Part shown: positions 5,829 through 42,481 of the stretch, piece by piece | Numbering within the stretch: position 1 is the stretch's first letter | Layout: each line of letters begins with the position of its first letter | Origin: Xestospongia bergquistia | Lineage: Eukaryota; Porifera; Demospongiae; Haplosclerida; Petrosiidae | Assembly (NCBI GenBank): GCA_963965975.1 | Contig: OZ014422.1 | Location: forward strand, 6,365,701-6,429,700 | Length of the DNA: 64,000 nucleotides | Direction: 5' to 3' | The notes under the pieces: generated by a model | What the model saw: the letters and a program-made list of their open reading frames with translations, nothing else | Databases searched by the model: none | What the model was told of the DNA's origin: nothing | Translations under genes and position numbers: made by a program

Positions 5829-5883
5829 ATAGCACTTACAACTTACTAACAAGTGTATTATATAATATATAGTTAGCCAAACG

Positions 5884-6466: not shown

Positions 6467-6706
6467 TGTTTTCTTATTAATATGTCATATTACTTATTAT
6501 CTAACCAGTAACAGGTTTTATTAATTTTGCAATCCTAAGTACAACCCCCACTCAAAATATTCATTGTTCCTAATTAATAAAATATTTATTAGGAAAATGT
6601 AGTCTCATTAATTATTATATATTAGTTAATAACCTGTATTAAATAAACACACTAATAAGTGAGGTACATGTGTATATGTAGAAGTTTGTTGCATACTATG
6701 ATACTA
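6467..6706. other. AT-rich 3' flank of GT2
   Basis: Short spacer between the foldback element and the stop codon of GT2, with TTAATTAATAAAATATTTATTA-type AT-rich dyads (partial motif). No gene seen. Confidence 0.5.
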
Positions 6707-11853: not shown

Positions 11854-14800
11854 ATGGCTACCGCTTTTGAAAGTAAGCTAGAAGAGAAACCAGACCTTGA
11901 TGAGTTAATCCAACATGTTAGAGTTGGTAGTAACTGGTACTCGCTTGGTGTACTCCTCAAATTGGATGAAATTAAACTAAACGATATCAGAAAGATGGAT
12001 GAAGACAGTGATTTTAAAGCATCACAAATGTTTCAGTTATGGCTTAGGACCAACCCCAATGCTACAAGAAGACAAGTTATTAACACATTAAAAAAGGAAC
12101 CTATTAAAGCGGTTACTGTTGCTGATAATTATAAAAAAGCATTACAGAGTGAGCCTTCTGGTAAGGGTAGACTATTTTTTTAAAGAAAATACATTTAATT
12201 TTCTTTACTTTTCAATATAGCTCAAGTATTTGAAGATACAACTGATCAGATTGCACCATTAGATCAAAATGACAGAACTAGTGATGAACGCAGTGCTATT
12301 TGTATATTTCAATGTCACTTTGGAAGATTACAACAATCTTTACAGAATCTTATCGATGTAGCTCATATTCTTCATGATGAGAAGATAATATCAGAGAAAG
12401 TGCTTAATAATAGTATGGAAATTGCCTCACAGACACTATCAGACAGAAGAAGAATTCTGCTAACTGCTTTACGTGATGCTATTCACACCGACCACCAATT
12501 TCTAAAGGTGTTTGCTGAAGTGCTTTTAAAGTTCACTGAAAATGTACCATTAGCTAATGCTATTTTGAAAGATTACAGTAAGTGTGTTAGTTTTTAATGC
12601 ATATGTATGTATGTTAACCATTCACAGTCCATGTATAACTGTGTATGTGTGTGTGTGTGTGTGTTGTGTGTCATGCATAATTAATATATTATACCTTCGG
12701 TAATTGTGTTCTCTTAATTATAGGATCAATCATTGAAAATGACGGTCATGAAGATGAATACAATGATGGTAAATCATTAGATACTAGAACATAATCTTTA
12801 TATAATATGCACCAAGTAAAAATAGGAAATTCATTATATTGTTAATTTTATATATTAAGTCTTTGCTGTAGATCTAGAGCCTGCTTTATCTGACAGAGAA
12901 ATTGAGCAAGGACAGCCTACTACTGAGAGTCAAGGTAAGAAGATAGCATCCAACTGCATTATTTGATATCAATTTTAGAAGTAATGTCAAGTCATGTTAT
13001 TCCTATTGCTATGAAACCCGTATTTAATGAAATTAGAAGCAAGTTTGGATTAGTACTCTTTAAAGTCCGAAATGCTATTTTAAAGAAACCACCCCCATTA
13101 GAGGATGTGAAAATGTTACTTGAAGGCACTTATGTTGAGCTGAAGTCTCAAATAGCTCATGCTACTACCATTAATGAAGTCATCAAAATAGTACAAGATA
13201 AATGTACACTTATTGATATCAGTTATCTGGAGATAATAGTTAAGGCATTCGATATCCAAGAAGCCAAAAGCCATATTGATGAATACAAAAGTGCAAAAGA
13301 TCAGTTTTGTAAAACTGTGTCTGTTCATCTTTGTCTTGATCAAAGTTTTAAAGAAGCAAATACCTCATCTTCTCTCAGATGTGAAACAGCCACGTTCACA
13401 TTGGACTGGGAACCTGAGAATTGTGTGATAAATTACATCAAAGAAATCCTCTCTGAATGCTTTCAAAAACTCTCTAGATATGTTCAAGTTGAAATTATTA
13501 AAAAGACCAATTCCATTGAAGTGGTCTGTACATTTCCACTTAGTTTGGCTGTTCTATTGATTGCTAAAGCTCACGAAACTATTGACCATATTAAGAAGAG
13601 AGGATTGATTAGACTAAAAATTGGTCATTGCCTTATTTATGATAAACGCAAAACAGACAAGGTATTAAGACATAAATGCAAATTTCATTTTTTATGTTCA
13701 TGTTGATAGGACAATGAGATAATAGACCTTAAGAAGAAAGTAAATGATTTAGAAGACAGACTTAAGAAAGTGACAACTGAAAAAGACCAGAAGACAAAAG
13801 AATTGCAAGGTATAATGGTGATAGATTGTTAAGTAGTCAATTAACTTTATCAATATGTTATAGATTCTAGCATTGAATTAGAAATGTTAAAGAAAGTGAG
13901 CAGAGCAAAAACACTAGAGACAGAGCGGTACCGATTGACATCTGTTCTACAAGGAAAAGAATGTAAGCAGTATGATACTAAGCTACCTTTCTAATAATTA
14001 ATAATATTAGTAGACAGACAAGAAGAAATAAATCAGTTGACTAGAGAAAAAGAAGGTATTAAGTTATAATACATTTAGTAATATGTATAGTATCTATGTT
14101 TTTATTAGCTGCTAATAAACTATTAGTAGACTCACAAGAAGATGTAGAAAAACTGCAGGAAATAGTTTCAAGACTAACTGTGGAACTAAATGAAAAAAAG
14201 ACAATGATCACCAAATTGATAGAGAACAAGAAAAGTAAAATATAAATACATTATAATTGTTTTAGTACATGGCTTCATGTACAATGAATATCCAATAGGC
14301 CTGATATCTCGCATAGCAGAAGTAAGTGCTTGGTTCAAGTCTGACAAAGTCAAGTCAGACAAAGTCAAGTTTAGTCAGAGTCTTGATGAGATAGTAACTG
14401 ATGAAACATCAGCAGACAAACAAAAAGAGATAAATCAGTTTACTAGAGAAAAAGAAGGTATTAAGTTATGCTACTTTTAGTAATGTGTATAGTATCTATG
14501 TTTTTATTAGTTACTGATAAACTACTAGTAGAGACACAAGAAAATATAAAAAAACTGCAGGAAAAAGTCTCAACACTAACTTCGCAATTAAATGAAAGAG
14601 AGACAAAGATCACCCAATTGATAGACAGCAGGAAAAGTAAAGTATAAATACATTTATAATTGTTTTAGTTCATGACTTCATATATAATGAATATCCACTA
14701 GGTCTGATATCTCGCATAGCGGAAGTAAGCGATCAGTTCAAGTCTGACAATCTTGAGTTTAGTCAAAAACTTAATGAGATAGTAACTGATGAAACAGAGG

Positions 14801-16152
14801 AGGTAGGAATATCAGCCACTCAAGGTATATACATGCTCATGTTGTATACTGTTGTCTTGGCTATTTTTATTTATAATATCAACATTTATTCAGGCATATT
14901 AGTGATTATTGTTTTTTTACCTCTATAAATTGATGGTTTAAATAGATGTACAACTAGAAATGCAACATTCAGAATAATAGACCTTTCAATTGCTTTTATT
15001 AATTCATAAATGAAAACTGACTTACAGGTCAAAGGCCTGTAGGAGCCCATACTCATGGATTGTGGAGTACCCCTATTGTGGTTTCAGGCTACACCCTAGG
15101 TCACTTTTCTCACAAGTATTTTATGCCATAGCATTTTACAGACAGACAGATATTTAATACTTACCTCACTAAGAAAGATTGTATTCAAGTACTAATTAAG
15201 TGAAATAATCTTTCTGTTAAATGCCTGTTTGTTGCCAACTTTATTCACAAAGTAGTAAACATTTATAGCTACATCTAACTTATTATTTTAACAGTAAATA
15301 TTTATATAAAATGTTATATCATTATGCTGCTTACTTGTATGCTAAAATGTTCATATAATAGGATACTCTGGATTTATTGAGTGGTGTGATGATAGAATTG
15401 TTGAGCTTAGCTCACCAAATATGGAACAATGTGAAAAAGTAGTCACTAAATTAAAGGAAGAAAAACAATTAGGACAAGAATGGAGCATTCGCCTTAAAAA
15501 GTCATCTTCTAAGATTGCTCTAGCAATTATTAATGATCTTAATGAGTGTGCAGTGACAACTCTTGATATACGATACACTCCATTGACTAGTTCTTTTATG
15601 TCTACACTATCTGACATTCTCAGCGAAAATAAAACATTGAAGAGATTAGTCTTTTTTGACTCTCCATTTCCTGGTGGTGATATGAAGCAGCTAACTAGAG
15701 CTATCTCTACTAACAATACACTTGAGGAGTTAGTCTTGGAAAATGTTCCTGTCAATGATGAAGATACAACTTACTTGTCCGACATGTTAAAAAATAACCA
15801 AACGCTAAAGTTACTACGTCTCATTGCATGTAATATCACTGATAATGGCATTCACAATATATATGAAGGGCTAGTAAAAAATAAAGCAATGACCAGATTA
15901 TTCTTCAGTAATAATCCTCAAATCACTTCTGCTAGTACTAATGTAATAGTAGACCTAATGCGGAATACTAAATCGTTACAAGAGCTACATCTTGCAGCTA
16001 CTTCACTTGAAGAGAAGGACATTGAAACTATTTGTAATGCACTTGTTAAAATTGATACAATGGAGATACTAATGTTGTCTAAAAGACATCAGAAGCATTG
16101 TCAGACATTTGACTGTTATGATTATATTAAAAGCAAACTTCATTTTTGGTAA
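11854..16152 (+). CDS. Gene A: Death-CARD-module X-coiled coil-LRR protein
   Basis: Thirteen exons stay in frame and give about 1029 aa: 11854-12160, 12221-12577, 12724-12768, 12872-12934, 12979-13661, 13710-13809, 13864-13962, 14011-14055, 14109-14234, 14266-14457, 14511-14636, 14669-14824, 15362-16152. Nearly all junctions are phase 1; the module X/coiled-coil junction is phase 0. Death domain: residues about 15-100 (LGVLLKLDEIKLNDIRKM, then FQLWLRTNP). CARD-like helices: about 135-220 (VFAEVLLKFTENVPLANAIL). Module X: 258-485. Coiled coil: 486-766. Ribonuclease-inhibitor-type LRRs of about 28 residues: 800-1015, e.g. NNTLEELVLENVPVNDED. The start codon (AGCAATGGC) is conserved in B and C; an in-frame ATG 42 nt upstream is less likely. 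No NACHT. Likely a cytosolic death-fold signalling or sensing protein; ligand unknown. Exon calls are by eye. Confidence 0.8.
12643..12672. repeat. (GT)n microsatellite in intron 2 of gene A
   Basis: A run of GTGTATGTGTGTGTGTGTG lies in the intron after the CARD exon. Genes B and C have shorter GT-rich tracts at the same place (18084-18100 and about 26265-26282). Confidence 0.8.
14825..15361 (+). other. 537 nt intron before the LRR exon of gene A
   Basis: This is the largest gene A intron. It contains a segment (TTACAGGTCAAAGGCCTGTA, about 15024-15043) also present in the same intron of C (about 28616-28635) and D (about 35180-35199). The LRR exon therefore duplicated together with its upstream intron. 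No gene within it. Confidence 0.6.
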
Positions 16153-17259
16153 TATAACAAACTCTGAAATGATACATATATAGTAGCTATTGTCTGTAGA
16201 ACACACAACACACAGTGTCTATTATTACTAACATTATGAATTTTGCTTTTTTTACTAGTAGTTCTGATTTTACTTTTTTTAATGATATTTATTATTTCTC
16301 TTTTATGTAACAGTTGTTGAATATTTATAACTCTCATTGTTGTTCTAAACTTTAACTATCTGATTTTTATTGTTGTTAAAAAGGCTTAGAGTGGGGTCTA
16401 GCAACAGTATCAAAGTAATATAAAGCTTATCCTCAGAACATTTTGACACAAACAGTGTGCCACACTCTAAAATTTTCACTTCTGCTTCCATAAAATTAAG
16501 GATTGTTCAATACATAATTAATTTAGCACCCTCAATAACACATTATGTTTAGCATCAAAACTATACTATTGCTTTCACTTAATCTGCTCATGACAGAACT
16601 CATAATAAAAATGGAGTCTCATCCCCAGACTTGCTGTGAAGAGTGGGTACTCTGGGGATGAGACCATGGAGGGAATGAGTAGGTATACTTCCCACATAAT
16701 GAATGAAATTTGTGTAGCCCAAGAGCAGTTACTGTTTCATAAACAATGTAACCTATATTCTATACAATCTATGAAAATAGTAGCTACTTTGCACAAAATG
16801 TCAATTTTTGGTACTTGCTATTTCCCTCACATTTTATTTTAGTCTTACATCGCCTACATTTAATTTCTGGGGGAGAGAGACTCTGTAAGTGAAAAATTGT
16901 TCCTGCACAGATCTGTACTGTGCTAGTCAAAATGCTTTCAGCAATGCTACATCATTACGTCATTGCTATTAGTCTGTTAGAGTGCAGCAATCTCATGTAT
17001 CCTCTTTATATAACGACAATATAAGACAGGAGAATCTTCAAACAAGTAGCTTTCCATCATAAACAGGTGTACTTGTCATCATATACATAAGATATATTCG
17101 TTAGCAATAAAAAAATTATTGCCATGTTTACTCTCTGACACACCCATTCACTGATTAGCACAGAGTATCACTCCCAAGAAACTTGAGATTATTTATGACT
17201 CGTGAATATTGTATCTATGCATAATTTCTATTATGGCGTGATTTGAGTTTTTTCATTGA
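16153..17259. repeat. Gene A-B spacer, duplicated before gene C
   Basis: From about 16381 (AGGCTTAGAGTGGGGTCTAG) to the gene B start, this is near-identical to 24509-25475 before gene C, with small indels. It includes a hairpin: GTCTCATCCCCAGA at 16616-16629 and its perfect complement at 16651-16664. The 5' part (16153-16380) is the 3' flank shared by the LRR genes. No coding region seen. Confidence 0.75.
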
Positions 17260-17279
17260 GCCTCACCCTAACTTTAGCA

Positions 17280-20200
17280 ATGGCTGAAAACAAGCTAGAA
17301 GAGAAACCGAACCTTGCTGAGTTAATCCAGCATGTTAGGGTTGGAAGTAAATGGCACCTGCTTGGTGTACTCCTCGAATTAGACGAAGTTAAACTAAATG
17401 ATATCAGAAGGATGACAGAAGGCAGTGATTTTAAAGCATTAAAAATGTTCCAGTTGTGGCTTAACACCAACCCCAATGCTACAAGAAGACAAGTTATTGA
17501 CGCATTAAAAAAGGAACCTGTTAAAGAGATGACTGTTGCTGATAATTATGAAAAAATATTACAGAGTGAGCCTTCTGGTAAGGATAGATTATTTTCTTAA
17601 AGAAAATAATTTCAATTTTTTCACTTCTCATTATAGCTCAAGTATTTGAAGATACAACTGATCAGATTGCACCATTAGATCAAAGTGACAGAACTAGTTA
17701 TGAACACAATGCTATTAGCATATTTCAATGTCACTTTAGAAGACTACAACAATTTTTACAGAATCCTATCAGTGTAGCTCGTTTTCTTCATAATGAGAAG
17801 ATAATATCAGAGGCGGTGCTTAATAGTGTCAAATCTGCTTCACAGACACTAGGAGACAGAAGAATAATTTTGCTAACTGCTTTACAGGATGCTATTAACA
17901 CCAACTACCAATTTCTAAAGGTGTTTGCTGAAGTGCTTTTAAAGTTCACAGAAAATGTACCATTAGCTAATGCTATTTTGAAGGACTACAGTAAGTGTGT
18001 GTGTATTTACTGCATATGTATGTATGTTGACCATACAGAGTTTAATTGCATGTGTGTATTTATGTACATGTGCTTGCATGCGTGTGTGTGTGTGGGTGGG
18101 TGAGTGCATAATTAGTATATTTTACTTATGGGTAATTGTGTTCTCTTATAGGAACAATTATTGAAAATGATACTGACTACTATGATGGTAAATATTATAC
18201 TATGTAAATAAGTATCATCTTAAAATTGTTTTGGAATATACTGATCTCACAATAAAACCTTTGAGTTGTGAAGATTAGAAAATTGGTAGCAGTGCCTTTA
18301 TTATATAGAATTCAGAAGTATAACTTAAAAGCCAAAGAAGCATGATCAGTCATGCATTTTGAATACCAGTTTCAGTTCAATATAACACACACAGACCTCA
18401 TGCCAGTTATGAATATACATAAAGTCTGAGTTCTTAAATTGCTAGTTCCTTCATTACAAAATAGTAGCAGGTTTATATGGACCTAATGACAAACTTTATC
18501 TTTTCTGTCATTGTTGATGGGTCTATAAACCTGCCAAGTTTAGATTTATATCCACACCTATTTGATAAACATATCACATGATCATTTGCTTGCTTGCTGT
18601 TGTTTGATTGTGTGTTATCTTCAGGACAATTATAACTAAACTATTGTCAATTGCCACACTTGTTGTTCATATTTTATGTTTGAAACATCATCTGTTGCCT
18701 ATTCCATTCAGTAGATTTTCATGAAGTTGCAGTGATCAATGGATCTGCATGAAAGCTTGCTAAATATTAGGCTGACTAATATTACTGTATAATACTATGA
18801 CTGTGTCTAAGGTTCTACTTTGTATTATAATACATATTTTCTTATACATAGTACCTACTTCTCCAAATATAACTATGGCTCCAAGTTTGAATCTATCTTT
18901 TTCTGATAATACTAGAACTGTTAATATCATTATCACATTATGGCCTCTTGGCTTTATTTATGGCAGGATTGGTTAATATATACTTTCTTATAGGTAATGT
19001 AGAGTATTTGTCACTCTCAATACCAACATGAGATTGATCAGGAGTTTTAATAGAATAAGAGTCATTCTAAGAAATTGTGTTAGTTGACTGAAAAATATCA
19101 TTATAAATTTGTACAAAGAACATGATATATACATATATGCACCAAAATGAAAAATGGATCATGTGTTTGTTCATTGTTATAGCTCTAAAGCCTGCTTTAC
19201 CTGACAGAGAAATTGAACTAGGACAGCCTACTACTGAGAGTAAGGCTAAGATAATGATAGAATGCAGCTATGTTATTTGATCCTTCTTTTAGATGCAATG
19301 TCATGTCGTATTACTCATGCTATGAAACCTTTATTTACTGAAATAAGGAGCAAGTTTGGAAGGACATTCTTTAGAGTCCGAAAAGCTATTTCAAAGAATT
19401 CTCCACTCATAGAGGACCTCAAAACGTTCCTTCAAGACAGCTTCCCAGATCTGAAGCCTCAAATATCTCATGTTAAAACTATTGATGAGATCCTTGATAT
19501 AATACTAAAAAAGTGTACACTTATTGATATCAGTTACTTGGAAATAATTGTTGAAGAATTTGACATCCAAGAAGCTAAAAGTTATATTGAGGAATACAAA
19601 AGTTATATAAAAGAGATTTGTAAAACTTTGTCTGTTAAGCTTTGTCTTGATGAAAGTTTTAATGTGAAGAATTCATCTTCTCTCAAAGGTGAAACAGCCA
19701 CTTTCATATTTGATTGGGATCCTGACGATTGTACGATAAATGATATTGAAGAAATCCTCTCTGTATGTCTTGAAGAACTGTCTATACATGTTCAAGTTGA
19801 AACCATTAAAACAATTAATATAGAAGAGAGACTTAAGAAAGTGACAACTGAAAAAGACCAGAAGACAAAAGAACTGCAAGGTGATAATAGTGATGGATTA
19901 TTAAGTAGTCAATTAACTCTTTCAATCTGTTACAGATTTTAACATTGAACTAAAAATGTTAAAGAAAATGAATGGAGCAAAAACACTAGAGTACCAATCT
20001 GTTCTACAAAGAAAAGAAGGTAAGTTGTATGATACTAAGCTACTTTTCTAATAATTAATTTTAATAGTAAAGATAGATCAGTTGACTAGAGAAAAAGAAG
20101 GTATTAAGTTATGCTACTTTAAATAATATGTATGGTATATATGTTTTTATTAGCTGCTAATAAGCTATTAGTAGACTCACAAAAAGATGTAGAAAAACTG

Positions 20201-23200
20201 CAGGAAATAGTTTCAAAACTAACTGGGGAACTAAATGAAAAAAAGACAATGATCACCAAATTGATAGAGAGCAGGAAAAGTAAAATATAAATACATTATA
20301 ATTGTTTTAGTTCTTGGCTTCATGTACAATGAATATCCATTAGGTCTGATATCTCGCATAGCAAAAGTAAGTGCTTGGTTCAAGTCTGACAAAGTCAAGT
20401 CTGACAATCTTGAGTTTAGTCAAAGACTTGATGAGATAGTTACTGATGAAACATCAGCAGACAAACAAAAAGAGATAAATCAGTTGACTAGAGAAAAAGA
20501 AGGTATTAAGCTATGATACATTTAGTAATATATATAGTATATATGTTTTTATTAGATGCTAATAAACTATTAGTAGCCACACAAGAAAATCTAGAAATAT
20601 TGCAGGAAAAAGTTTCTACACTAACTTGGCAACTAAATGAAAGAGAGAAAAATATTACCCAATTGACAGAAAACATGAAAGGTAAAAATATAAATACATT
20701 TATAATTGTTTTAGTTCATGACTTCATGTGCAATGAATATACATTAGGCCTGATGTCTTGCATAAGAGATAATGGTGCTAGATTATTAAGCAGTCAATTA
20801 ACTCTTTCAATCTGTTACAGACTCTAACAAGAAACTAGAAATGCAAAAGAAAATGAATGGAGCACAAACACTAGAGTACCAATCTGTTCTACAAAGAAAA
20901 GAAGGTAAGTTGTATGATACTAAGCTACGTTTCTAATAATTAATATTGATAGAAAAGATAAATCATTTAACTAGAGAAAAAGAAGGTATTAAGATATACT
21001 ACTTTTAATAATATTTATAGTATATATGTTTTTATTAGCTACTAATAAACTATTAGTAGACACACAAGAAAATCTAAAAATACTGCATGAAGAAGTTTCT
21101 ACACTAACTTGGCAACTAAATCAAAGAGAGAAAAATAGTACCCAATGGACAGAAAACATGAAAGGTAAAAATATGAAGACATTTATAATTGTTTTAGTTC
21201 ATGACTTCATGTGCAATGAATATCCATTAGGCCTGATATCTCGCATAAGAGATAATGGTGCTAGATTATTAAGCAGTCAATTAACTCTTTCAATCTGTTA
21301 CAGACTCTAACAAGAAACTAGAAATGCAAAAGAAGATGAGCAGAGCAAAAACACTAGAGATAGAGAAGTACCGAGTGAGATTTGTTCAACAGCAAGGAAA
21401 AGAAAGTAAGCAGTATGATATTAAGCTGCTTTTCTAATAATTAATAATGTTAGTAGATAGACAAGGAGAGATAAATCAGTTGAGTAGAGAAAAAGAAGGT
21501 ATTAAGTTACGCTACTTTTAGTAATATGTATAGTATATATGTTTTTATTAGCTACTGATAAACAAGTAGTAGACACACAAGAAAATCAAGAAATTCTGCA
21601 GGAAAAAGCTTCACCACTAACTTGCCAATTAAACGAAAGACAGACAAAGATCACCCAATTGATAGAGAGCAGGAAAGGTATGGTAAACTTCAATGATGAG
21701 AAATAAATCATGACTTATGTATTCACATGAAAGAGAGTCACATATTATAGCTTTTATTAATATATTTTTTACATGTAATGTAGAGAACCATTTCTCTTTG
21801 TACCTGTCACACTGTTTTACTATGACAATTTAATTATTATAATTATTAATTTTTAATACCATTCATTGTAAAAGTAATTTTTTACAAAATGTTCATAATT
21901 AGAGGGCATATAGTTACAATAAAAATGTTACTGCATTACTTAAACAGTTTATAAAACCATCACAACACATTACTGTCTATATAATTTTTAGGTTTAGAAA
22001 CATTAAAACAAACTGATTCATTAATTCAAGAAAAAGGAGAAAACAGCACACAAGTATCTATTATAGCAGGTGGTACAGCAGTGACTACTAAAGATGTTGA
22101 ATGTCAGTTCAATTATCTTGTTCCTTCTCTTGGTACGTGAATAATATTATCTATTATATTGTCATATTGATATATCTTACATATTAGATCAACTAGAGTA
22201 TCTTGATGGTACTGGTGTTCATTTAGCAGGTAAAACACTATTCCTTATACAAGGAGAATCTACTCAGTTATTAAATTGGGAGGAGTATGGTTTAAGGATT
22301 AATGTACCTCATGGAATGACACCTCCTGGAGAAATATGTGAAATATCTATTGCAGCAATTGTAGGGGGAAAGTTTGAGTTTCCCTCTGGTACATCACTAG
22401 TCAGTGCTATTTACGCCATTTCTGTTTCCAGAGCCCTCCTCCAACCTGTCCAGTTATCCATTCAACATTGTGTATCTTTAGAGACACAAGAACACACTAG
22501 TTACCTCAGTTTTGTTACAGCTGATCTCTATCAATCTGTACTACCATACAAGTTTAAACTAGAGCAAGGAGGGCAGTTCTATCCTGGACACCAATATGGC
22601 AGTATTTCTACTCAGTTCTCTTTAAAAGCAATTGTTAAAGCTGTCTTGAGACCAATAAGATGGCTATTAGGTTATGAAGATGATGAAGATAGTACTAGTC
22701 CTGAACAGGTTCCTCTGTCACAATCTTCATCATCTGATGATGATTCTCTTTTTGTGGATGCCTCAGAAGTAACAGTTTCTATGATGAACAAAGGTTTTTA
22801 AACAACATATTTTTATAGTTATCATATTAATATTTCATTAGATGAGCCTTCTTTAAGATGTTCTCCAGTCAATCTGTATGTTGGTCAAGTAGTGTATGAA
22901 GTGGAAAGCCAAACTCAATGGTTGATGAGATTTTTGGTTTCACTACATCTTGATGCTCTTTTACAGGTAAGAGTTTTGTAGTACTGAGTGACTCTGATAT
23001 TTGTTCCAATTATATATAGTATATTCACACTTCACTTCCAAATGCCAAAAAAGATGTCCATATATACTTCAAATTTCAAGAGGAGAATGGATATATTGAA
23101 TTAATTATTAGAGAAGAAGATCATCCTTTTCCTCAAGGATGGAATATTTATCCACATTTCTATCCTACTAGGGTACATGACAATGTTTTAATAACTAGAT

Positions 23201-24065
23201 AGCATTATTATCTTATAACATAGATTAGTCAAGTTGATGTAGACATGTTAAGTGATCAAAGTCCTCCTCAGTTTCCTTCCTGTTTGATGACAGTGTCTGC
23301 TACTCCCAGGGATACTACTGTCCCAGTACTTCAATATCGTATCACTTTAAATGGTATCAAGTTAAATGTCATTAATGAAGGAGAAGCCCTCATTCCAGAG
23401 ATTTGCATTGTACGATCTCTTGGTAAGGATAACAATCAACTAATATCATTAATCTCTTTATTTTTATAGCTACTAGTACAAGACAATCTGTAAGAGGATT
23501 AGAAAATACTGATAGTAAGTTCATCATGTAATTGTGTTGTTGCTATGGTCGCGAAAACATGAATAACTTACTTATACATCTTTAGCTTTATAAAAAATGT
23601 GATTAACTATATTAACATTGTAATTACTATTCATCATTGGAGCTCCAATTTAAATCATTAATACTTTAAAATATTTTCAACGTAAAAAATATAAACGTAA
23701 GATTTAACAGCTGTATGTTTTGTCTCTTTACTCTAGATGGTACTCAAAACTGTGAAATAGGTAGAAGGGCATTAGTTCAATGTACCGATATTATTGTTGA
23801 GTCTAACATTGACCCCATCACCCTAGCAAGGAGACTGTATTCAAAAGAAATTATTTCTGAGGATGTTTACAAAATTGTTAAAGACAAGAAAACAGGATAT
23901 ACTAGTACTGATCGTCTTGACTATATTCTGGATGATCTAAAGGATCGTGTCAAACATGATGCTAGTGCCTTCACATTTTTTTTAGATATTTTGAGAGATG
24001 ATAGTTTTAATCGACAAGATTTAGCTGACAAAATAATGTCAAAATATAAAGGTATGATATATTAA
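17280..24065 (+). CDS. Gene B: Death-CARD-module X-coiled coil-ZU5-UPA-like-CARD protein
   Basis: Twenty-three exons stay in frame for about 1335 aa: 17280-17577, 17637-17990, 18152-18187, 19183-19239, 19293-19880, 19936-20019, 20068-20100, 20154-20279, 20311-20502, 20556-20681, 20821-20904, 20953-20985, 21039-21164, 21304-21405, 21454-21498, 21552-21677, 21992-22132, 22188-22793, 22842-22966, 23020-23172, 23224-23422, 23470-23514, 23737-24065. Death domain: 1-99. CARD-like: about 130-215. Shortened module X: about 250-425. Coiled coil: to about 803. ZU5 core: about 870-1000 (YGLRINVPHGMTPPGEICEI, QPVQLSIQHC). UPA-like segment: 1055-1205. C-terminal CARD: about 1235-1330 (STDRLDYILDDLKDRVKHD, FLDILRDD). 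It ends like NLRP1/CARD8, whose ZU5-UPA (FIIND) self-cleaves before Ser of His-Phe-Ser; here the matching strand has Gln993-Phe-Ser. No NACHT or LRR. Exon calls are by eye; a further 3' exon is possible. Confidence 0.78.
18188..19182 (+). other. 995 nt intron 3 of gene B
   Basis: No gene seen. The first part, to about 18340, is near-identical to 26373-26525 in gene C. The rest aligns with indels to 26526-26965, showing the duplication included intron DNA. Confidence 0.6.
20511..21478 (+). repeat. 483 bp tandem duplication of a coiled-coil exon block inside gene B
   Basis: The block of 126 nt exon, remnant exon and 84-102 nt exon (20556-20904) recurs at 21039-21405. Acceptors before ACTCTAACAAG lie at 20820 and 21303, 483 bp apart. 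Each copy holds a dead exon (about 20719-20765 and 21202-21248): the start of a 192 nt-type exon fused directly to intron sequence and so lacking a donor. Confidence 0.75.
21678..21991 (+). other. 314 nt intron separating the coiled coil from the ZU5 half of gene B
   Basis: Very AT-rich intron. It is the point where gene B departs from the A/C/D paralogues, so it probably contains or borders the exon-shuffling joint. No gene seen. Confidence 0.5.
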
Positions 24066-25456: not shown

Positions 25457-25475
25457 CCCCACCCTAACTTTAGCA

Positions 25476-28400
25476 ATGGCTACCACTTTTGAAAACAAGC
25501 TAGAAAAGAAACCGAACCTTGCTGAGTTAATCCAGCATGTTAGGGTTGGAAGTAAATGGCACCTGCTTGGTGTACTCCTCGAATTAGACGAAGTTGAACT
25601 AAATGATATCAGAAGGATGACAGAAGGCAGTGATTTTAAAGCATTAAAAATGTTTCAGTTGTGGCTTAAGACCAACCCCAATGCTACAAGAAGACAAGTT
25701 ATTGACGCATTAAAAAAGGAACCTGTTAAAGAGATGAATTATGAAAAAATATTACAGAGTGAGCCTTCTGGTAAGGATAGATTAAAGAAAATAATTTCAA
25801 TTTTTTCACTTCTCATTATAGCTCAAGTATTTGAAGATACAACTGATCAGATTGCACCATTAGATCAAAGTGACAGAATTAGTTATGAACACAATGCTAT
25901 TAGCATATTTCAATGTCACTTTAGAAGACTACAACAATCTTTACAGAATCCTATCAGTGTAGCTCGTTTTCTTCATAATGAGAAGATAATATCAGAGGCG
26001 GTGCTTAATAGTGTCAAATCTGCTTCACAGACACTAGGAGACAGAAGAATAATTTTGCTAACTGCTTTACAGGATGCTATTAACACCAACTACCAATTTC
26101 TAAAGGTGTTTGCTGAAGTGCTTTTAAAGTTCACAGAAAATGTACCATTAGCTAATGCTATTTTGAAGGACTACAGTAAGTGTGTGTGTATTTACTGCAT
26201 ATGTATGTATGTTGACCATACAGAGTTTAATTGCATGTGTGTATTTATGTACATGTGCTTGCATGCGTGTGTGTGTGTGGGTGGGTGAGTGCATAATTAG
26301 TATATTTTACTTATGGGTAATTGTGTTCTCTTATAGGAACAATTATTGAAAATGATACTGACTACTATGATGGTAAATATTATACTATGTAAATAAGTAT
26401 CATCTTAAAATTGTTTTGGAATATACTGATCTCACAATAAAACCTTTGAGTTGTGAAGATTAGAAAATTGGTAGCAGTGCCTTTATTATATAGAATTCAG
26501 AAGTATAACTTAAAGGCCAAAGAAGCATGATCAGTCATGCCTTTTAAATGAAAGTATCATTTTAATATAATATGCATAGACCCCATGCCAGTTATGAATA
26601 TACATAGGTCTGAGTGCTTAAATTTCTAGTTCCTTCATTAAACTAACACAGTAGCAGGTTTATATATAATCTGACAAGCTTTATCTTTTCTGTTATTTTT
26701 GATGGGTCTATAAATCTGCCAACTTTAGGTTTATATTCACACCTATTTGATTAACATATCACATGATGATTTGCTGCGTGCTTTATGTTGCTTGATTATG
26801 AACTATCTTCAGGACAATTATGGCTAAACTATTATCAATTGTCACACTTGTTGAATCATAATATTCATATTTTATGATATTATATCTGTTTGAAGCAGCA
26901 TCTGTTGCCTGTAGATTTTCATGTAGTTGCAGTGACACTGCATGCATCTGCATGAAAGCTTGCTGCATAAATAAAATATTAGGCTAGATAAAATAAAGCT
27001 AGGACAGCCTACTACTGAGAGTAAGGCTAAGATAATGATAGAATGCAGCTATGTTATTTGATCCTTCTTTTAGATGCAATGTCATGTCGTATTACTCATG
27101 CTATGAAACCTTTATTTACTGAAATAAGGAGCAAGTTTGGAAGGACATTCTTTAGAGTCCGAAAAGCTATTTCAAAGAGTTCTCCACTCATAGAGGACCT
27201 CAAAACGTTCCTTCAAGACAGCTTCCCAGATCTGAAGCCTCAAATGTCTCATGTTAAAACCATTGATGATACCCTTGATATAATACGAGATAAGTGTACA
27301 CTTATTGATTTCAATTACCTGGAGACAATTGTTGAAGAATTTGACATCCAAGAAGCTAAAAGTTATATTGAGGAATACAAAAGTTATATAAAAGAGATTT
27401 GTAAAACTTTGTCTGTTAAGCTTTGTCTTGATGAAAGTTTTAATGTGAAGAATTCATCTTCTCTCAAAGGTGAAACAGCCACTTTCATATTGGACTGGGA
27501 TCCTGACAAGTTTACGATAAATGATATTGAAGAAATCCTCTCTGTATGTCTTGAAGAACTCTCTATCCATGTTCAAGTTGTAACCACTAAAAAAGCCAAT
27601 TCTATTGAGGTGGTCTGTAAATTTCCGCTTAGTTTGGCTGTTCTATTGATTGCTAAAGCTCAAGAAACTATTGATTGTGTTAAGAAAAGAGGATTGATCA
27701 AACTAAAAATTGGTCATTGCCTTATTTTTGATAAAAGCAAAATGGACAAGGTATTAAGACATAAATGCAAATTTCATTTTTTATGTTCATGTTGATAGGA
27801 CGATGAGATAAGAGATGTTGAGAAGAAAGTAAATGAATTAGAAGACAGACTTAAGAAAGTGACAGCTGAAAAAGACCAGAAGACAAAAGGTATAATGGTG
27901 ATGGATTATTAAGCAGTCAATTAACTCTTTCAATCTGTTACAGATTTTAACATGGAACTAGAAATGTTAAAGAAAGTGAGCAGAGCAAAAACACAAGAGA
28001 CAGAGCAGTACCGAGTGACATCTGTTCCACAAGGAAAAGAATGTAAGCTCTATAATGTTAAGCTACCTTTCTAATAATTAATAATATTAGTAGACAGACA
28101 AAAAGAGATAAATCAGTTGACTAGAGAAAAAGAAGGTATTAAATTATGCTACTTTTAGTAATATATATAGTATATGATTTTATTAGCTGCTAATAAACTA
28201 TTAGTAGACACACAAGAAAATCTAGAAATACAGCGGGAAAAAGTCTCTACACTAACTTGGCAACTAAATGAAAGAGAGAAAAAGATTACCCAATTGGTAG
28301 AGAACATAAAAGGTAAAAATTTATAGACATATCTAATTGTTGAGTTTATGACTTCGTGTACAATGAATATTCATTAGGCCTGAAATCTCGTATAGCAGAG

Positions 28401-29744
28401 GTAAGTGCTCGGTTTAAGTCAGACAACATGAAGTTTAGTCAAAGACTTGATGAGATAGTAACTGATAAAACAGAGGAAGTGGGAATATCAGGTATATACA
28501 TGGTCATATTGTGTATTATTGTCTTAGCTATTTTTATTTATAACATCAACATTTATTCAGGCATTTCAATGATAACCTTATTATTGTCTCTGAATGCAAC
28601 ATCCCAAAACAATACTTACAGGTCAAGGGCCTGTAGGAGCCCATAATAATGGACTCTAGAGTATCCCAAGTATTGATTTTAGGCCACATCCTAAGGCACT
28701 TTTCTCACAAGTATTACATGTCATAGCATCCTATTTGCAAGCAAATATCTACTACTAACCTCACTAAGAAAGATGTATTCAAGTATGAATGAAATTAAAT
28801 AGTCTTTTGTTAAATGTCTACTTATTGCTGGTTTTATTCATAGAGTAGTAAACATTTGTAGGTACATGTAAGTTTTTATTTAACAATAAAAAATTATACA
28901 AAATGTTATATTGTTATTCTGCATACTTGTATGCTAAAATTTTCATTTAATAGGATACACTGGTGATATTGAGTGGTGCGATGATGGAGTTGTTGAGTTT
29001 AACTTACCAATTATGGAACAATGTGAAGAAGTAGTCACTAAATTAAAGGAAGAAAAACAGTTAGGACAAGAATGGAGCATTCGCCTTAAAAAGTCATCTT
29101 CTAAAGTTGCTTCAGCAGTTATTAGTGACCTCAATGAGTGTGCAGTGACAACTCTTAATATACGATATACTCCATTGACTAGTTCTTTTATGTCTACACT
29201 ATCCGACATTCTCAGCGAAAATAAAACATTGAAGAGATTAGTCTTTTTTGACTCTCCATTTCCTGGTGGTGATATGAAGCAGCTAACTAGAGCTATCTCT
29301 ACTAACACTACACTTGAGGAGTTAGTCTTGGAAAATGTTCCTGTCAATGATGAAGATACAACTTATTTGTCCGACATGTTAAAGAATAACCAAACATTAA
29401 AGTTACTACGTCTTTTAACATGTAATATTACCGATAATGGCATTCACAATATACATGAAGGGCTGGTTAAAAATAAAGCAATGACCAGATTGCTCTTCAG
29501 TAATAATCCTCAAATCACTTCTGCTAGTACTAATGTAATAGTAGACCTAATGAAGAATACTAAATCGTTAAAAGAGCTACATCTTGCAGCTACTTCACTC
29601 AAAGATAAGGACATTGAAACTATTTGTAATGCACTTGTTAAAGTTGATACAATGGAGATACTAATGTTGTCTAAAAAACATCAGGAGCATTGTCAGACAT
29701 TAGACTGTTATGATTATATTAAAAGTAAACTTCATTTTTGGTAA
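25476..29744 (+). CDS. Gene C: Death-CARD-module X-coiled coil-LRR protein
   Basis: Eleven exons give about 892 aa in frame: 25476-25770, 25822-26175, 26337-26372, 27003-27020 (tentative), 27074-27750, 27799-27889, 27944-28042, 28091-28135, 28187-28312, 28345-28491, 28954-29744. Same architecture as gene A: Death domain 1-98, CARD-like about 130-215, module X 235-460, coiled coil 461-629, LRRs 630-892. The first half is near-identical to gene B, the LRR half to gene A. Oddities: a 4-residue deletion late in the Death domain compared with B (VKEMNYEKI against VKEMTVADNYEKI); a 51 nt first intron with no stop in frame, so retention would insert 17 residues; and a probable 18 nt micro-exon left after 5' deletion of the exon 4 equivalent. 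Function inferred as for gene A. Confidence 0.78.
26373..27002 (+). other. 630 nt intron 3 of gene C
   Basis: Homologous to gene B intron 3 but about 365 nt shorter. The deletion also removed the start of the following exon. No gene seen. Confidence 0.5.
28492..28953 (+). other. 462 nt intron before the LRR exon of gene C
   Basis: Homologous to the equivalent introns of genes A and D (shared TTACAGGTCAAgGGCCTGTA, here about 28616-28635). No gene seen. Confidence 0.55.
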
Positions 29745-30583: not shown

Positions 30584-30618
30584 CCCCACCCTACTTTCTA
30601 CGTATTCAAGGCTGTGCC

Positions 30619-33600
30619 ATGGAAGTATTACAATCAGAAAATATAGAGGACATCTTATTTGATGAAACAATCAACACTGATCCTCTATCTTCTATTTCTC
30701 AGCAACAAAATGAGACTGTGACAGAATTAAACATGTCAAACTCAAGAAAACGACAAAGAGAAGTTAAACAAACAACAGAGGAAACATTAAGTGACAAAAA
30801 AAGTTAAGTATGAGTTTATAACATCATTGATTCCTTCTATATGTCTTGTTAATTATACAGACCAAGATGAGGATGTTAAAGAGTTTCAAAGAGATCCTTT
30901 CAATATGATAACAAATTGTGAATTGGGTGAGTTGAAAGTACATTAATTAAACAAAGTCTGAAGAATATCATCATTTGAAAATTCCTTTATGTAATTTTAA
31001 TTTAGATATTAGTGACTTAAAAGATGTTATTGAAGCATTGAAACAAGGCTACTTTCCAAACCATAAGTTTATCCCTCTTGGTCTTCAATTGGGTCTACTA
31101 CAACCTACTTTAGCTGATATTAAAGCAAACCATAAAGATGATGTGGAGAGTGGTCTTCGGGAATGTTTAACGCGGTGGTTGCGTAAAGCTGACAAGGTTA
31201 CTGAGAATGGAGGCTCTACTAGGAAGTCATTAGCTGATGCTCTACACAAAATAGAAGAAAATTTTGCTGCTAAAAAAATAATGGAATTTGGTGAGAATTT
31301 CAACAATGGACATGTCAGAGCATTTCACTTATTATTTTTTCTTGTAGAATTCTCTACTCCAGCATACCAAATGTTCCAGAAAGTCAATGAGAATTTTATT
31401 GCTGAGGAACACAAGAGACCATTGGTAGAAAGTAAGTCAAAGAAATACTGTGTAGTGGATAATTTTGGAGAGAGAAAATATTGGTGAATTTATATAATTA
31501 ATATATTTTGATGAGTGACTTCTAACTACTACTACACCCCTAGTTAAAATATTGGACAATTTACCAAAAATTCACTGATATTGTCTCCCTAAAAAATTCC
31601 CTACACACAGTAGATTGTTTTAATATGACAATATATTATTTCTCTTCCCTCACAAAAATAGTGCAAAAAGAGGTTCTATGTCGACTATTACAGAAACACT
31701 CTGAAAGTCTCTTACAAGTTGTGTTTCCAATGGAGACGGTTTGGAAGTTACATAAAGAGGGAGTTATTTCTAAGGAGACATTAGATGAACTTGAAAGATC
31801 TGAAGGATTACTAACTGATGATTCATTGAGAGCACTGTCTAATACAGTATCTGAAGACCCCAACCAGTTAAAAGTATTCAGTACTGTATTATTACAATCA
31901 GAAGATACAAGACATTTTGCACAAGATATACTCAAAGAATACAGTAAGTGGTTTGAGCTTTTACTGTTAATACCAAAATTTTATATTATAGATCAAAATT
32001 TTCTTGAAGTACCCTCACTACTAAGTCAATCAGGTATGTATCTACAATGTATCTGTTCCATTTAATGATGTATTATATGACATAATAATTTTAGTAACAG
32101 ATACAACTGTTCAGACCTCTCAACAAGTTACATCTACAACCACTCAAAGTTAGATTATTAAATGATTGTTTATTTTATAATGACAGTTGTACACAGGTAG
32201 TGTGATGACACATCATCTTTCACCTACTTATAAGTATGATTTTGATCAAATGAGAACAAAATTAGGAGATCTTATTCTCACTGTGTTACCTCTTATCGAA
32301 TCTGCTGTCACATCAAAATTGAAAGAATTGAAAACATTTCTTCGAATGTCATTCCAAGAGCTAAAACCTCAGTTAGCAATAGCAGAATCATTTGATGATG
32401 TCATGGATATTGTGCGAGAGAAATGTACCATTATCAATATTGCTTGCCTAGAGGCTATTATCAATCGTTACAAAATTGAAGAGGCTAAAAGTCATATCAC
32501 AGCATACAAAATGGAAGTTGATCAGTTTTGTGAAGATGTCAAACTCCGTGTGTGTGAAAATGAGGATTTCATGCCAAATCAATCTTCTCTTCTCAAATGT
32601 GAAACAATGAAGTTTCTCCTGGAGTGGGATATTGATAAACACACACTTAGTGAAGTACAAGATCTGTTATGGAAAGCATTTGGAAGTATGGCTAAGAGAG
32701 TTTTAGTTAAAAAAGCAGAAGAAAGTAACTCTATCATTGTGACCTGCTATGCTCCATATAATATAACGGATATTCTACTAATGGAAGCTGAGAAGAATCT
32801 TGACATACTAATAAAGATGGGCTTAATGAAATTAAGTATTAGCTATCACATTGTTTATGATAGATGTACAAGAGATAAGGTATAAGAGATAACTAGTACT
32901 ATTGATGTTATATTATATATATTGATATATAGGAGGTGAGATGTCTTATGGATGAAGTGAAAGGTTTAGAAGAGAAGCTTGTTTTACAAAGAAAGTCGTC
33001 AGCTGAAAATGATCAGCCAATACTCAAGTTGAAATCATCTCTAGAAGGTAGTATATGCATTATGCAATAATAATATTGTCATTATATTACATATTAGGAA
33101 CACAAGATCAATCATTAACTGACACTTTATCAGGTACATGTACATTAATTGAGATATAACTATGTACCTAATTTAAATAGAAAAGCTGAAATTATCAGAG
33201 AAAATGAGTAAGGCAAAGACCTTGGAGATTGAAAAGTTAAACATATATAAAGAAAGTTAGTTAAAATATTATTACAGTAGCACATACCATATATGGTTAT
33301 GTTCTATAGCTACTGATAAAGTATTACTAGAGAAACAAGAAGAGATTGAGAAGTTGACCAGAGAGAAAAAAGGTAAGCTTTAGTACTGTTAATAGTACAT
33401 ACCATATATGGTTATGTTCTATAGCTACTGATAAAGTATTACTAGAGAAACAAGAAGAGATTGAGAAGTTGACCAGAGAGAAAGAAGGTAAGCTTTAGTA
33501 CTGTTAATAGTACATACCATATATGGTTATGTTCTATAGCTACTGATAAAGTATTAGTAGAGAAACAAGAAGAGATTGAGAAGTTGACCAGAGAGAAAGA

Positions 33601-36304
33601 AGGTAAGCTTTAGTACTGTTAATAGTACATACCATTTATGGTTATGTTCTATAGCTACTCATAAAGTATTACTAGAGAAACAAGAAGAGATTGAGAAGTT
33701 GACCAGAGAGAAAGAAGGTAAGCTTTAGTACTGTTAATAGTACATACCATATATGGTTATGTTCTATAGCTACTCATAAAGTATTAGTAGAGAAACAAGA
33801 AGAGATCGAGAAGTTGACCAGAGAGAAAGAAGGTAAGCTTTAGTACTGTTAATAGTACATACCATTTATGGTTATGTTCTATAGCTACTCATAAAGTATT
33901 AGTAGAGAAACAAGAAGAGATTGAGAAGTTGACCAGAGAGAAAGAAGGTAAGCTTTAGTACTGTTAATAGTACATACCATATATGGTTATGTTCTATAGC
34001 TACTGATAAAGTATTAGTAGAAAAACAAGAAGAGATTAAGAAGTTGACCAGAGAGAAAGAAGGTAAGCTCTAGTACAAAAGAATTTCAAGGTGATAATGG
34101 TGATAGATTGCTAAGTACGCAATCAATAACTCTTTCATTCTATGATAGATTCTAAAATGGAACTAGAATTGCAAACAAAACTGGGTGGAGCAAAAACATT
34201 AGAAACAGAGCAGTCATCTGTTCAACAGGGAAAAGAAGGCAAGCTGTGTGATACTAAGTTACTTCTGATAATTAATAATATTAGTAAGAGATCTTGAGAA
34301 GAAAGTAAATGATTTAGAAGACAGACTTAAGAAAGTGACAGCTGAAAAAGACCAGAAGACAAAAGAATTGCAAGGTACAATGGTGATAGATTGTTAAGTA
34401 GTCAATAAACTCTTTCAATCTGTTACAGATTCTAATGTGGGACTAGGAATGTTAAAGAAAGTGAGCAGAGCTAAAACACCAGAGACAGAGCAGTACCAAG
34501 TGACATCTGTTCTACAAGGAAAAGAATGTAAGCTCTATAATGTTAAGATAGCCTTCTAATAATTAATAATATTAGTAGACAGACAAGATGAGATAAATCA
34601 GTTGACTAGAGAAAAAGAAGGTATTAAGTTATACTATACTTTTAATAATATGTACAGTACCTATGCTTCTATTAGCCGCTAATAAACTATTAGTAGACAC
34701 ACAAGAAAATTTAGAAATACTGCAGGACAAAGTTTCTAGACTATCTTGGCAACTAAATGAAAAAGAGAACAAACAATTGTTAGAGAACATAAATGGTAAA
34801 AATATAAAGACATTTATAATTGTTTTAGTTCATGGCTTCATGTAAAATAAATATCCATTAGGTCTGAAATCTTGCATGAGAGAAGTAAGTGCTCGGTTCA
34901 GGTCTGAGAATCCCGAGTTTAGTCAAAGACTTGATGAGATAGCAACTGATGAAAAAGAGGAAGTGGGAATATCAGCCACTCCAGGTATATGCATGGTCAT
35001 ATTGTGTATTATTGCCTTAGCTATGTTTTATTTATAACATTAAAATTTATTCAGGCATTTCAGTGATAGCCTTCCTCTGTAAATGGATGCTTCGAATAGA
35101 TTTAAATGCACAACTAGAATTCAAGATCTCAAAACAATAGCCCTCAAACCTTTAATACAGCATATATGAAAACTGACTTACAGGTCAAGGACTTATAAGG
35201 AGCCCATACTCATGGACTACGGAGTATCCTAAGTATTGATTTCAGGCCACATCCTATAGCTAAGCCACTTTTCTCACAAGCATTATTTGTTATAGCATCT
35301 TATTTGCAGGCAAATATCTACTACTTAGCTCACTAAGAAAGATGTATTCAAGTATGAATGAAATTAAATAGTCTTCTGTTAAATTCCTACTTATTGCTGG
35401 TTTTATTCATAGAGTAGTAAACATTTGTAGGTACATGTAGCTTTTTATTAAACAATAAAAATTATACAAAATGTTATTCTCCATACTTGTATGCTAAAAT
35501 TTTCATATAATAGGATACACTGGTGATATTGAGTGGTGTGATGATAGAATTGTTGAACTTAACTTACCAAATAAGGTACAATGTGAAGAAGTAGTCACTA
35601 AATTAAAGGAAGAAAAACAGTTAGGACAAGAATGGAGCATTCGCCTTAAAAAGTCATCTTCTAAAGTTGCTTCAGCAATTATTAGTAACCTCAATGAGTG
35701 TGCAGTGACAACTCTTGATATACGATACACTCCATTGACTAGTTCTTTTATGTCTACACTATCCGACATTCTCAGCGAAAATAAAACATTGAAGAGATTA
35801 GTCTTTTTTGACTCTCCATTTCCTGGTGGTGATATGAAGCAGCTGACTAGAGCTATCTCTACTAACACTACACTTGAGGAGTTAGTCATGGAAAATGTTC
35901 CTGTCACAGATGAAGATGCAACTTACTTGTCCGACATGTTAAAAAATAACGAAACACTAAAGTTACTACGTCTCATTGCATGTAATATCACCGATAATGG
36001 CATTCACAATATACATGAAGGGCTGGTTAAAAATAAAGCAATGACCAGATTGTTCTTCAGTAATAATCCTCAAATCACTTCTGTTAGTACTAATGTAATA
36101 GTAGACCTAATGCGGAATACTAAATTGTTAAAAGAACTACATCTTGCAGCTACTTTACTCAAAGATAAGGACATTGAAACTATTTGTAATGCACTTGTTA
36201 AAGTTGATACAATGGAGATACTGATGTTGTCCAAAAGACATCAGGAGCATTGTCAGACATTAGACTGTTATGATGATATTAAAAGCAAACTTCATTTTTG
36301 GTAA
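30619..36304 (+). CDS. Gene D: Death-CARD-module X-long coiled coil-LRR protein with tandem cassette exons
   Basis: In-frame exons (about 1234 aa): 30619-30802, 30861-30926, 31006-31290, 31348-31431, 31662-31943, 31992-32033, 32095-32148, 32197-32879, 32933-33047, 33098-33133, 33181-33255, seven 63 nt cassettes in 33310-34062, 34149-34238, 34285-34374, 34429-34527, 34576-34620, 34676-34795, 34862-34984, 35514-36304. An extra charged N-terminus with a basic patch (SRKRQR) precedes the Death domain (about 95-170, FIPLGLQLGLLQPTLADI). CARD-like: 207-300. Module X: 333-560. Coiled coil: 561-971, including cassettes 636-782. LRRs: 972-1234. The N-terminal half is strongly diverged from A-C, while from exon 34285 onward it is nearly identical to A and C: a chimera. 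One intron (34239-34284) appears to use a GC donor. The penultimate exon has a TAA if the usual acceptor is used, but a downstream in-frame acceptor at 34860-34861 avoids it. Exon calls are by eye. Confidence 0.77.
33310..34062 (+). repeat. Seven-copy tandem exon array, 115 bp period (63 nt exon + 52 nt intron)
   Basis: Exons 33310-33372, 33425-33487, 33540-33602, 33655-33717, 33770-33832, 33885-33947 and 34000-34062 repeat at exactly 115 bp. Each starts CTACT and ends GAAG before GTAAGC; introns begin GTAAGCTTTAGTAC and end TTCTATAG. Each exon is phase 1-1 and adds 21 residues (ATDKVLLEKQEEIEK then LTREKE), three heptads of charged helix. Copies differ by only a few bases: Asp/His at residue 3, Leu/Val at residue 7, one Glu to Lys in the last copy, one in the first. 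Introns are as alike as exons, which points to very recent unequal exchange. Confidence 0.92.
34985..35513 (+). other. 529 nt intron before the LRR exon of gene D
   Basis: Closely related to the matching introns of A and C, supporting a block transfer of the 3' half of the gene. No gene seen. Confidence 0.55.
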
Positions 36305-39006: not shown

Positions 39007-39175
39007 GTAAGCTAAAGTATTGAGGCACTTTATCCACTAAGGATTCCTATATTGCTTATTCATTTCATATGTATACTCACCCTCATCTCACTTTACAACG
39101 ACAATTTGGTAGTCCAGGTTACATGTATCCTGGTTTTATACAATCTTGGCTTGATTGTCCTTAAATTGTTGTTAT

Positions 39176-42433: not shown

Positions 42434-42481
42434 ATAAAATGGTCTGTTAACATGCATAAAATGAATTATAGTGACATGCAT

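What the first reader, a model, noticed from the sequence alone, without database searches (positions are those of the whole stretch)
11854..36304. Cluster of four modular death-fold proteins without NACHT, with exchangeable C-terminal halves
Four tandem genes share Death, CARD-like, module X and a coiled coil of symmetric micro-exons. Three then carry LRRs and one carries ZU5-UPA-CARD. The exons are almost all phase 1-1, so any can be gained, lost or swapped without breaking the frame. This looks like an innate-immune-type locus analogous to NLR or death-fold receptor clusters, but with the coiled coil where a NACHT would be expected. Seen: domains, phases, paralogy. Inferred: immune role.
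Basis: partly seen in the sequence, partly recalled or inferred. Interest (0 to 1): 0.85.

Follow-up and report, generated by a model that had tools for sequence, protein, structure and literature searches.

The report
TRADD-N death-fold gene cluster
Four neighbouring, probably sponge, genes encode cell-death-type signalling proteins from a very large, already described family, and two of them look like hybrids in which the front half of one gene was joined to the back half of another beside a short coiled-coil exon.

Summary
Four open gene models (13, 23, 10 and 24 exons) lie at 11854-36304, with 53 of 62 internal exons in phase 1-1. Death, CARD, ZU5 and NLR-type LRR assignments are supported, and no NACHT match lies on this contig. 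'Module X' is not new. Its second half is most likely a TRADD-N domain of the NCOA6 clade: ferredoxin-like predicted fold, a conserved serine at the beta2-beta3 turn in 31 of 31 complete copies checked, and all 8 genome-wide matches of Pfam NCOA6_TRADD-N falling on X exons, though all 8 score below the cut-off. Kaur et al. 2021 already describe 357 such proteins in the sponge Amphimedon: Death-like domains, TRADD-N, then a variable C-terminus. This genome holds at least 263 X exons. The immune role remains inference. 'Coiled coil in place of NACHT' is misleading, because the TRADD-N unit occupies the hub.

The parts
11854..16152 (+). Gene G1: Death (11854-12160), CARD (12221-12577), helical domain + TRADD-N = module X (12979-13661), coiled-coil micro-exons (13710-14824), LRR exon (15362-16152)
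   Evidence: gene model; Pfam Death; CARD fold; TRADD-N; LRR
17280..24065 (+). Gene G2, hybrid: Death (17280-17577), CARD (17637-17990), truncated module X fused in frame to coiled coil (19293-19880), coiled-coil micro-exons (19936-21677), linker (21992-22132), ZU5 (22188-22793), UPA-like (22842-23422), C-terminal CARD-like (23737-24065)
   Evidence: ZU5; C-terminal CARD only E 0.11; UPA by position only
21678..21680 (.). Joint of hybrid G2: homology to G1/G3 ends and homology to Death-ZU5 genes on contigs C5 and C3 begins, at the 5' splice site of the last coiled-coil exon
25476..29744 (+). Gene G3: Death (25476-25770), CARD (25822-26175), module X (27074-27750), coiled-coil micro-exons (27799-28491), LRR exon (28954-29744)
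30619..36304 (+). Gene G4, hybrid: leader (30619-30926), Death (31006-31431), CARD-like (31662-31943), module X of a divergent subfamily (32197-32879), coiled-coil micro-exons (32933-34984), LRR exon (35514-36304)
   Evidence: X 34% identical to G1 but 92% to a gene on contig C3; LRR exon 92% identical to G3 in protein
33278..34076 (+). 115-bp tandem array, 6.9 copies, 97% matches; each full unit holds one 63-nt phase 1-1 exon (21 residues); 7 such exons
34063..34088 (.). Joint of hybrid G4: the tandem array and left-type homology end at 34076; G1- and G3-type homology starts at 34075 and 34088, just after the last tandem exon
19805..19820 (+). Place in G2 where TRADD-N is cut at the beta2-beta3 turn, before the conserved serine, and runs on in frame into coiled coil (homology to G3 breaks at 19811-19813)
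   Evidence: a cut at the same turn in 3 other genes

Best explanation
The four genes are members of the NCOA6-clade TRADD-N death-fold family that is hugely expanded in sponges. The N-terminal Death and CARD domains are the assembly ends. The helical-plus-TRADD-N unit is the hub between a constant and a variable part. The coiled-coil micro-exons form a spacer, probably for oligomerisation. The C-terminal module (LRR, or ZU5-UPA-CARD) senses or relays. Most likely mode of action: an LRR-bound or ZU5-held closed protein opens on a danger or non-self cue, TRADD-N rearranges, and Death/CARD nucleate a signalling complex leading to defence or cell death. Shown here by sequence and prediction: gene structure, domains, likely family membership, genome-wide expansion and hybrid joints. 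Inferred: intracellular location, sensing, switch, assembly and immune outcome. At gene level, C-terminal halves are exchanged by joints next to the 5' splice sites of phase-1 coiled-coil exons, which keep the frame.
For: Gene models. Death, CARD fold, ZU5 8 of 8, NLR/RI-type LRR. TRADD-N: predicted beta-alpha-beta-beta-alpha-beta part, Ser178 in 31 of 31 complete copies checked, 8 of 8 PF13820 matches on X exons. Published description of the same architecture (PMC8195603, sections 8, 10, 12). At least 263 X exons; next listed feature downstream is this LRR type in 115 of 263 against a mean of 3.2 (maximum 10) in 200 random placements. Joints at 21680 and about 34076. Frames mostly open: no stop in 145 of 150 X matches and 141 of 150 listed in the second X search. 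dN/dS below 1 in all exon pairs but two short ones and one undefined. A phase-1 acceptor at the homologous place of the LRR exon in 8 of 8 loci.
Confidence: 0.7

Rival explanations
1. They are NLRs or NLR derivatives that lost the NACHT domain and work as inflammasome-like receptors through the LRR.
For: G1's LRR exon matches ribonuclease inhibitor and NLRP LRRs; N-terminal Death and CARD; 95 NACHT matches exist in the genome.
Against: No NACHT in the protein parts scanned or on contig C12. 0 of the first 150 X exons and 4 of 263 had a NACHT match as next listed feature, at 8.5-10.7 kb; in the one of these four read, X is followed by an NHL-like frame and then by exons that look like another gene. 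A TRADD-N-like unit sits in the hub.
Confidence: 0.1
2. The family serves self/non-self (allorecognition) or developmental cell-death control rather than defence against microbes.
For: Large, recombining families in a sessile animal fit histocompatibility (inference); Kaur et al. note that such expansions are found in marine, mostly sessile animals (passage).
Confidence: 0.25
3. The hybrids G2 and G4 are assembly artefacts or non-functional fusions.
For: The G4 joint adjoins a 115-bp tandem array, which is hard to assemble; G2 has lost part of TRADD-N.
Against: Both hybrids keep long open frames and consistent splice phases over 23 and 24 exons. G2's ZU5 exon differs from three relatives with dN/dS 0.33-0.65. 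A second locus with truncated TRADD-N, coiled-coil-like and ZU5 exons exists on C3.
Confidence: 0.12

Closest known systems
NCOA6-clade TRADD-N proteins of the sponge Amphimedon (Kaur et al. 2021, PMC8195603)
   Same: 1-3 Death-like domains, then TRADD-N, then a variable C-terminus that may be LRR; hundreds of copies; serine in the beta2-beta3 turn.
   Different: In the parts I saw (sections 8, 10, 12 and search passages), coiled-coil micro-exons, phase 1-1 exons, hybrid joints and genes with a cut TRADD-N are not described, and ZU5/FIIND fusions are mentioned for the DEDD2/TRADD-like clade, not for Amphimedon. Its supplementary tables were not readable here.
NLR receptors (NACHT-LRR) of sponges and vertebrates
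   Same: N-terminal Death or CARD; ribonuclease-inhibitor-type LRR at the C-terminus; clustered, expanded genes.
   Different: No NACHT; TRADD-N unit and coiled coil instead.
CARD8 / NLRP1 C-terminus (FIIND = ZU5-UPA, then CARD) and PIDD (recalled, not tested)
   Same: G2 ends in ZU5, a UPA-like stretch and a CARD-like domain; an F-S pair lies after ZU5 in G2 and in 7 of 7 close relatives.
   Different: Preceded by Death-CARD-cut TRADD-N-coiled coil; autoproteolysis not tested; the flanking motif is not H-F-S.
CARD9/CARMA1-type adaptors (CARD-coiled coil; recalled)
   Same: Death-fold domain followed by a long coiled coil.
   Different: TRADD-N hub and LRR or ZU5 C-terminus.

Membership tests
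NCOA6-clade TRADD-N expansion (Kaur et al. 2021) | N-terminal unit with 1-3 Death-like domains | tested here: met
   Death by Pfam in G1 and G2, sub-cut-off in G4; CARD fold
NCOA6-clade TRADD-N expansion (Kaur et al. 2021) | RRM-like (ferredoxin-like) alpha/beta domain | tested here: met
NCOA6-clade TRADD-N expansion (Kaur et al. 2021) | Conserved serine in the beta2-beta3 turn | tested here: met
   Invariant in the 26 copies of alignment A1 and in 31 of 31 complete copies; the truncated copies G2 and C3:1393104, not among these, lack it
NCOA6-clade TRADD-N expansion (Kaur et al. 2021) | Sequence match to Pfam PF13820 (NCOA6_TRADD-N) | tested here: inconclusive
   0 of 26 members in direct scan; genome-wide all 8 reported matches (E up to 10) fall on X exons, best 18.0 bits against cut-off 22.5
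NCOA6-clade TRADD-N expansion (Kaur et al. 2021) | Large lineage-specific expansion with variable C-termini | tested here: met
   At least 263 X exons; seen behind X: LRR, ZU5 + UPA-like + CARD-like, ZU5-like + Roc-like GTPase frame, GTPase-like frame, NHL-like frame, an unnamed 305-residue module; that each lies in the same gene as X is modelled only for the window genes
NLR | NACHT NTPase domain | tested here: not met
   None by Pfam in G1, two parts of G2 and the first 618 residues of G4; 0 of 95 genome NACHT matches on C12
NLR | C-terminal ribonuclease-inhibitor-type LRR | tested here: met
   G1 LRR exon against PDB: 5.2e-18 to ribonuclease inhibitor, 2.4e-11 to NLRP5; G3 and G4 LRR exons 90% identical to it
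CARD | Six-helix CARD fold | tested here: met
FIIND / PIDD-type ZU5-UPA | ZU5 domain | tested here: met
   Exon alone 22.6 bits against cut-off 21, longer fragment 20.5; G2 and 7 relatives all match
FIIND / PIDD-type ZU5-UPA | UPA domain | tested here: inconclusive
   No Pfam UPA match; position only
FIIND / PIDD-type ZU5-UPA | Autoproteolysis at F|S | not testable with these tools
   F-S pair in G2 and 7 of 7 close relatives, absent in the ZU5-like exons at C6:8443583 and C3:1099727; needs an assay

The most novel reading that the evidence does not exclude
The block of short phase-1 coiled-coil exons is an exchange hinge: a place where whole C-terminal sensor or relay halves are repeatedly joined to death-fold/TRADD-N fronts without breaking the frame, while tandem gain of 63-nt exons (21 residues, three heptads) lengthens the rod. 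Because the swapping may be ongoing, individuals could carry different front-back combinations, a germline combinatorial repertoire for immunity or self-recognition. A side branch replaces the serine half of TRADD-N by coiled coil and puts ZU5 at the back, so that ZU5 rather than TRADD-N would be the switch.
Probability: 0.2. Interest if true: 0.75.

Novelty: new member of a known kind. Interest (0 to 1): 0.45.

Why it matters
The locus shows, to within a few bases, how a huge invertebrate death-domain family can make new domain combinations: by joints beside the splice sites of interchangeable coiled-coil exons. It gives concrete genes (G2, G4) for testing whether TRADD-N is a switch, whether ZU5 can take its place, and whether the repertoire varies between individuals. 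It also corrects a likely misreading of such loci as NLRs without NACHT.

Tried and rejected
NLR origin: rejected for lack of NACHT and because a TRADD-N-like unit is in the hub. I suspected X-NACHT fusion on C2, where 4 X exons precede NACHT matches by 8.5-10.7 kb; the one stretch read shows an NHL-like open frame after X and then exons that look like another gene; the other three were not read. Pfam on the 26 copies of module X gave scattered names, the commonest RIH_assoc in 7 of 26 (best E 5e-4), and no TRADD-N; I have no explanation for RIH_assoc and did not pursue it. PDB profile search with X: best E 0.058, unrelated names. With the CARD alignment: best E 0.096, to 4irl, a fusion carrying a zebrafish CARD. 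phmmer of the ZU5-UPA-CARD part against PDB: nothing below E 0.37. Ankyrin co-location was uninformative: 6319 candidates, most listed hits on C14. An LRR hypervariability test was not run. Universal phase-1 exchange is contradicted by the C8 module, best acceptor phase 2 in 2 of 2; in the LRR check one of the 8 loci (L052) has a better-scoring acceptor elsewhere.

Limits of counts: each genome search scores only its best 150 or so candidates, so 263 X exons and 115 X-to-LRR neighbours are lower bounds; 'none' means not in my lists. The random-placement control used guessed lengths for contigs C9, C14 and C15. Alignment A1 is my choice of 26 copies: G2 and L022 (truncated) and L027, L031, L032, L033 were left out; one search added the last four and L074 and found the serine in all 31. 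Alignment A2 is likewise a choice of 26 domains. The hit lists were pasted by hand; one Death coordinate was entered under the wrong contig and corrected. The link between cut TRADD-N and ZU5 (2 of 3 X-to-ZU5 pairs within 4 kb, 2 of the other 260; P about 5e-4) was noticed after the fact and is exploratory; a fourth X-to-ZU5 pair 11.9 kb apart was left out, and a fifth, earlier-truncated X (C3:264807) raises P to 9e-4.
Full report
CHECK OF THE OBSERVATION. Exons were placed by hand and verified by script. Four genes on the + strand are fully open: G1 11854-16152 (13 exons, 1029 aa), G2 17280-24065 (23 exons, about 1335 aa), G3 25476-29744 (10 exons, 886 aa), G4 30619-36304 (24 exons, 1253 aa). 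All introns are GT-AG except one GC-AG. 53 of 62 internal exons are phase 1-1. The exceptions are the module X exon (phase 1-0 in G1, G3 and G4), its successor (0-1) and three ZU5-UPA exons of G2. The coiled-coil blocks encode about 281, 359, 169 and 411 residues; they were recognised by eye.

GENOME-WIDE PICTURE. The genome is 146 Mb in 21 contigs and holds at least 263 X exons, mostly on contigs C4 (109) and C3 (80). The next listed feature within 12 kb downstream on the same strand is this LRR type in 115 of 263, another X in 43, ZU5 in 4, NACHT in 4 and none of my lists in 97; 200 random placements give LRR 3.2 times on average, at most 10. No stop interrupts 145 of 150 X matches of the first search or 141 of 150 listed in the second. 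Other modules were seen behind X in fetched stretches: a 305-residue module without Pfam match after 5 X exons on C8, a ZU5-like exon and then a Roc-like GTPase frame on C6, an NHL-like frame on C2, a P-loop GTPase-like frame after a truncated X on C3, and coiled-coil-like and ZU5 exons after a truncated X elsewhere on C3. The NHL-like and C3 GTPase-like labels are from reading the sequence, and no gene models were built for these loci.

HYBRID GENES. G2 matches G1 and G3 up to 21680; from 21680 it matches ZU5 genes on C5 (85.6% over 1907 bp) and C3 (82-90%) instead. The joint lies within 3 bases of the end of the last coiled-coil exon. Read by eye, three of those relatives (L056, L057, L059) carry coiled-coil and Death exons upstream of the same linker and ZU5 exons. 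Of the 7 relatives, 3 have a listed Pfam Death match within 3 kb upstream and none has a listed X exon within 12 kb. So G2 has an X-LRR-family front and a Death-ZU5-family back. G4's front half resembles a gene on C3 (X 92% identical; 87% DNA identity over 2233 bp) and its X is only 34% identical to G1's, while its back half is 93% identical in DNA to G3 over 1267 bp. The switch lies at 34075-34088, just after the last of seven 63-nt exons in a 115-bp tandem array that ends at 34076. A stretch matching the end of a G1 coiled-coil exon now lies in the G4 intron. So two of the four genes look like front-back hybrids, and both joints are beside the 5' splice site of a coiled-coil exon. A phase-1 acceptor lies at the homologous place of the LRR exon in 8 of 8 loci checked, five of them outside the window.

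CUT TRADD-N. In G2 and in three genes on C3 (1393104, 1096061, 259074) homology to X stops at residues 172-178, at or just before the conserved serine 178 (the same number in G1 and G4). In G2 and C3:1393104 the frame runs on into coiled coil. Two of the three X-to-ZU5 pairs within 4 kb are of this kind (exploratory).

SELECTION. dN/dS is 0.28-0.78 for most exon pairs; two values above 1 belong to one short UPA-like exon with a single synonymous change each, and one pair (CARD of G2 and G3) has no synonymous change. Between the window genes the LRR exon (0.34-0.41) is more constrained than Death, CARD and X of G1-G3 (0.51-0.78), but G4's X and CARD against the C3 relative give 0.30 and 0.41; none of this was tested for significance. 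dS differs along G1-G3 (0.13-0.33), consistent with patchwork exchange.

MECHANISM. Best supported: an assembly-competent front (Death, CARD), a TRADD-N hub, a coiled-coil rod and a C-terminal sensor or relay. Kaur et al. propose that TRADD-N holds its flanks inactive and rearranges through the serine; G2, which lacks that serine, may use ZU5 for the switch. Sensing, assembly and an immune outcome are inferred. The family may instead serve self/non-self recognition or cell-death control.

NOVELTY. The kind is known. I did not find coiled-coil micro-exons, joints or cut TRADD-N genes described in five paper searches (listings and abstract beginnings) or in the parts of Kaur et al. seen; for a paper on Dysidea NLRs I saw passages only ('TRADD' and 'coiled' occur 0 times in its main text). 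The library lacks most subscription papers, so this is weak evidence of absence.

Noticed in passing
window 49623-63895: A 354-bp tandem satellite, about 40 copies at 92% matches, G+C about 22%, ends the window.
   Followed up: no
window 1656-8582 and 39165-42481: Long single-exon frames that look like a sulfotransferase, glycosyltransferase-like proteins (three of about 500 aa, - strand) and a DegT/DnrJ-type aminotransferase flank the death-fold cluster on both sides; 39165-39656 looks like a partial copy of the aminotransferase (names by eye). Possibly bacterial-like genes and a flanking duplication.
   Followed up: no
window 46382-47080, - strand: An open frame that looks like part of a protein kinase domain (by eye).
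   Followed up: no
L067 4628-5653 and 6627-7730 (contig C8, about 7.02-7.06 Mb): A module of about 305 residues with HVTH motifs and no Pfam match; 35 matches in the genome, and 5 of 5 listed X exons of this cluster are followed by it. Fold and function unknown.
   Followed up: partly
L022, L076, L077 (contig C3) and window G2: Four genes have TRADD-N cut at the beta2-beta3 turn before the conserved serine, two of them running in frame into coiled coil.
   Followed up: partly
L069 4498-6861 (contig C6): Behind X and a ZU5-like exon lies a 788-residue frame with weak, sub-cut-off Roc/Ras GTPase matches.
   Followed up: no
L075 (contig C2, 8985000-8994999): An X exon followed by an NHL-like frame (by eye) lies inside a NACHT gene cluster, one of at least 5 X exons there.
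   Followed up: partly
module X copies of alignment A1: 7 of 26 copies give a weak Pfam RIH_assoc match (best E 5e-4), unexplained.
   Followed up: no
contig C12 6439400-6445723, beyond the window: The same family goes on about 10 kb past the window: two LRR exons and one X exon.
   Followed up: no
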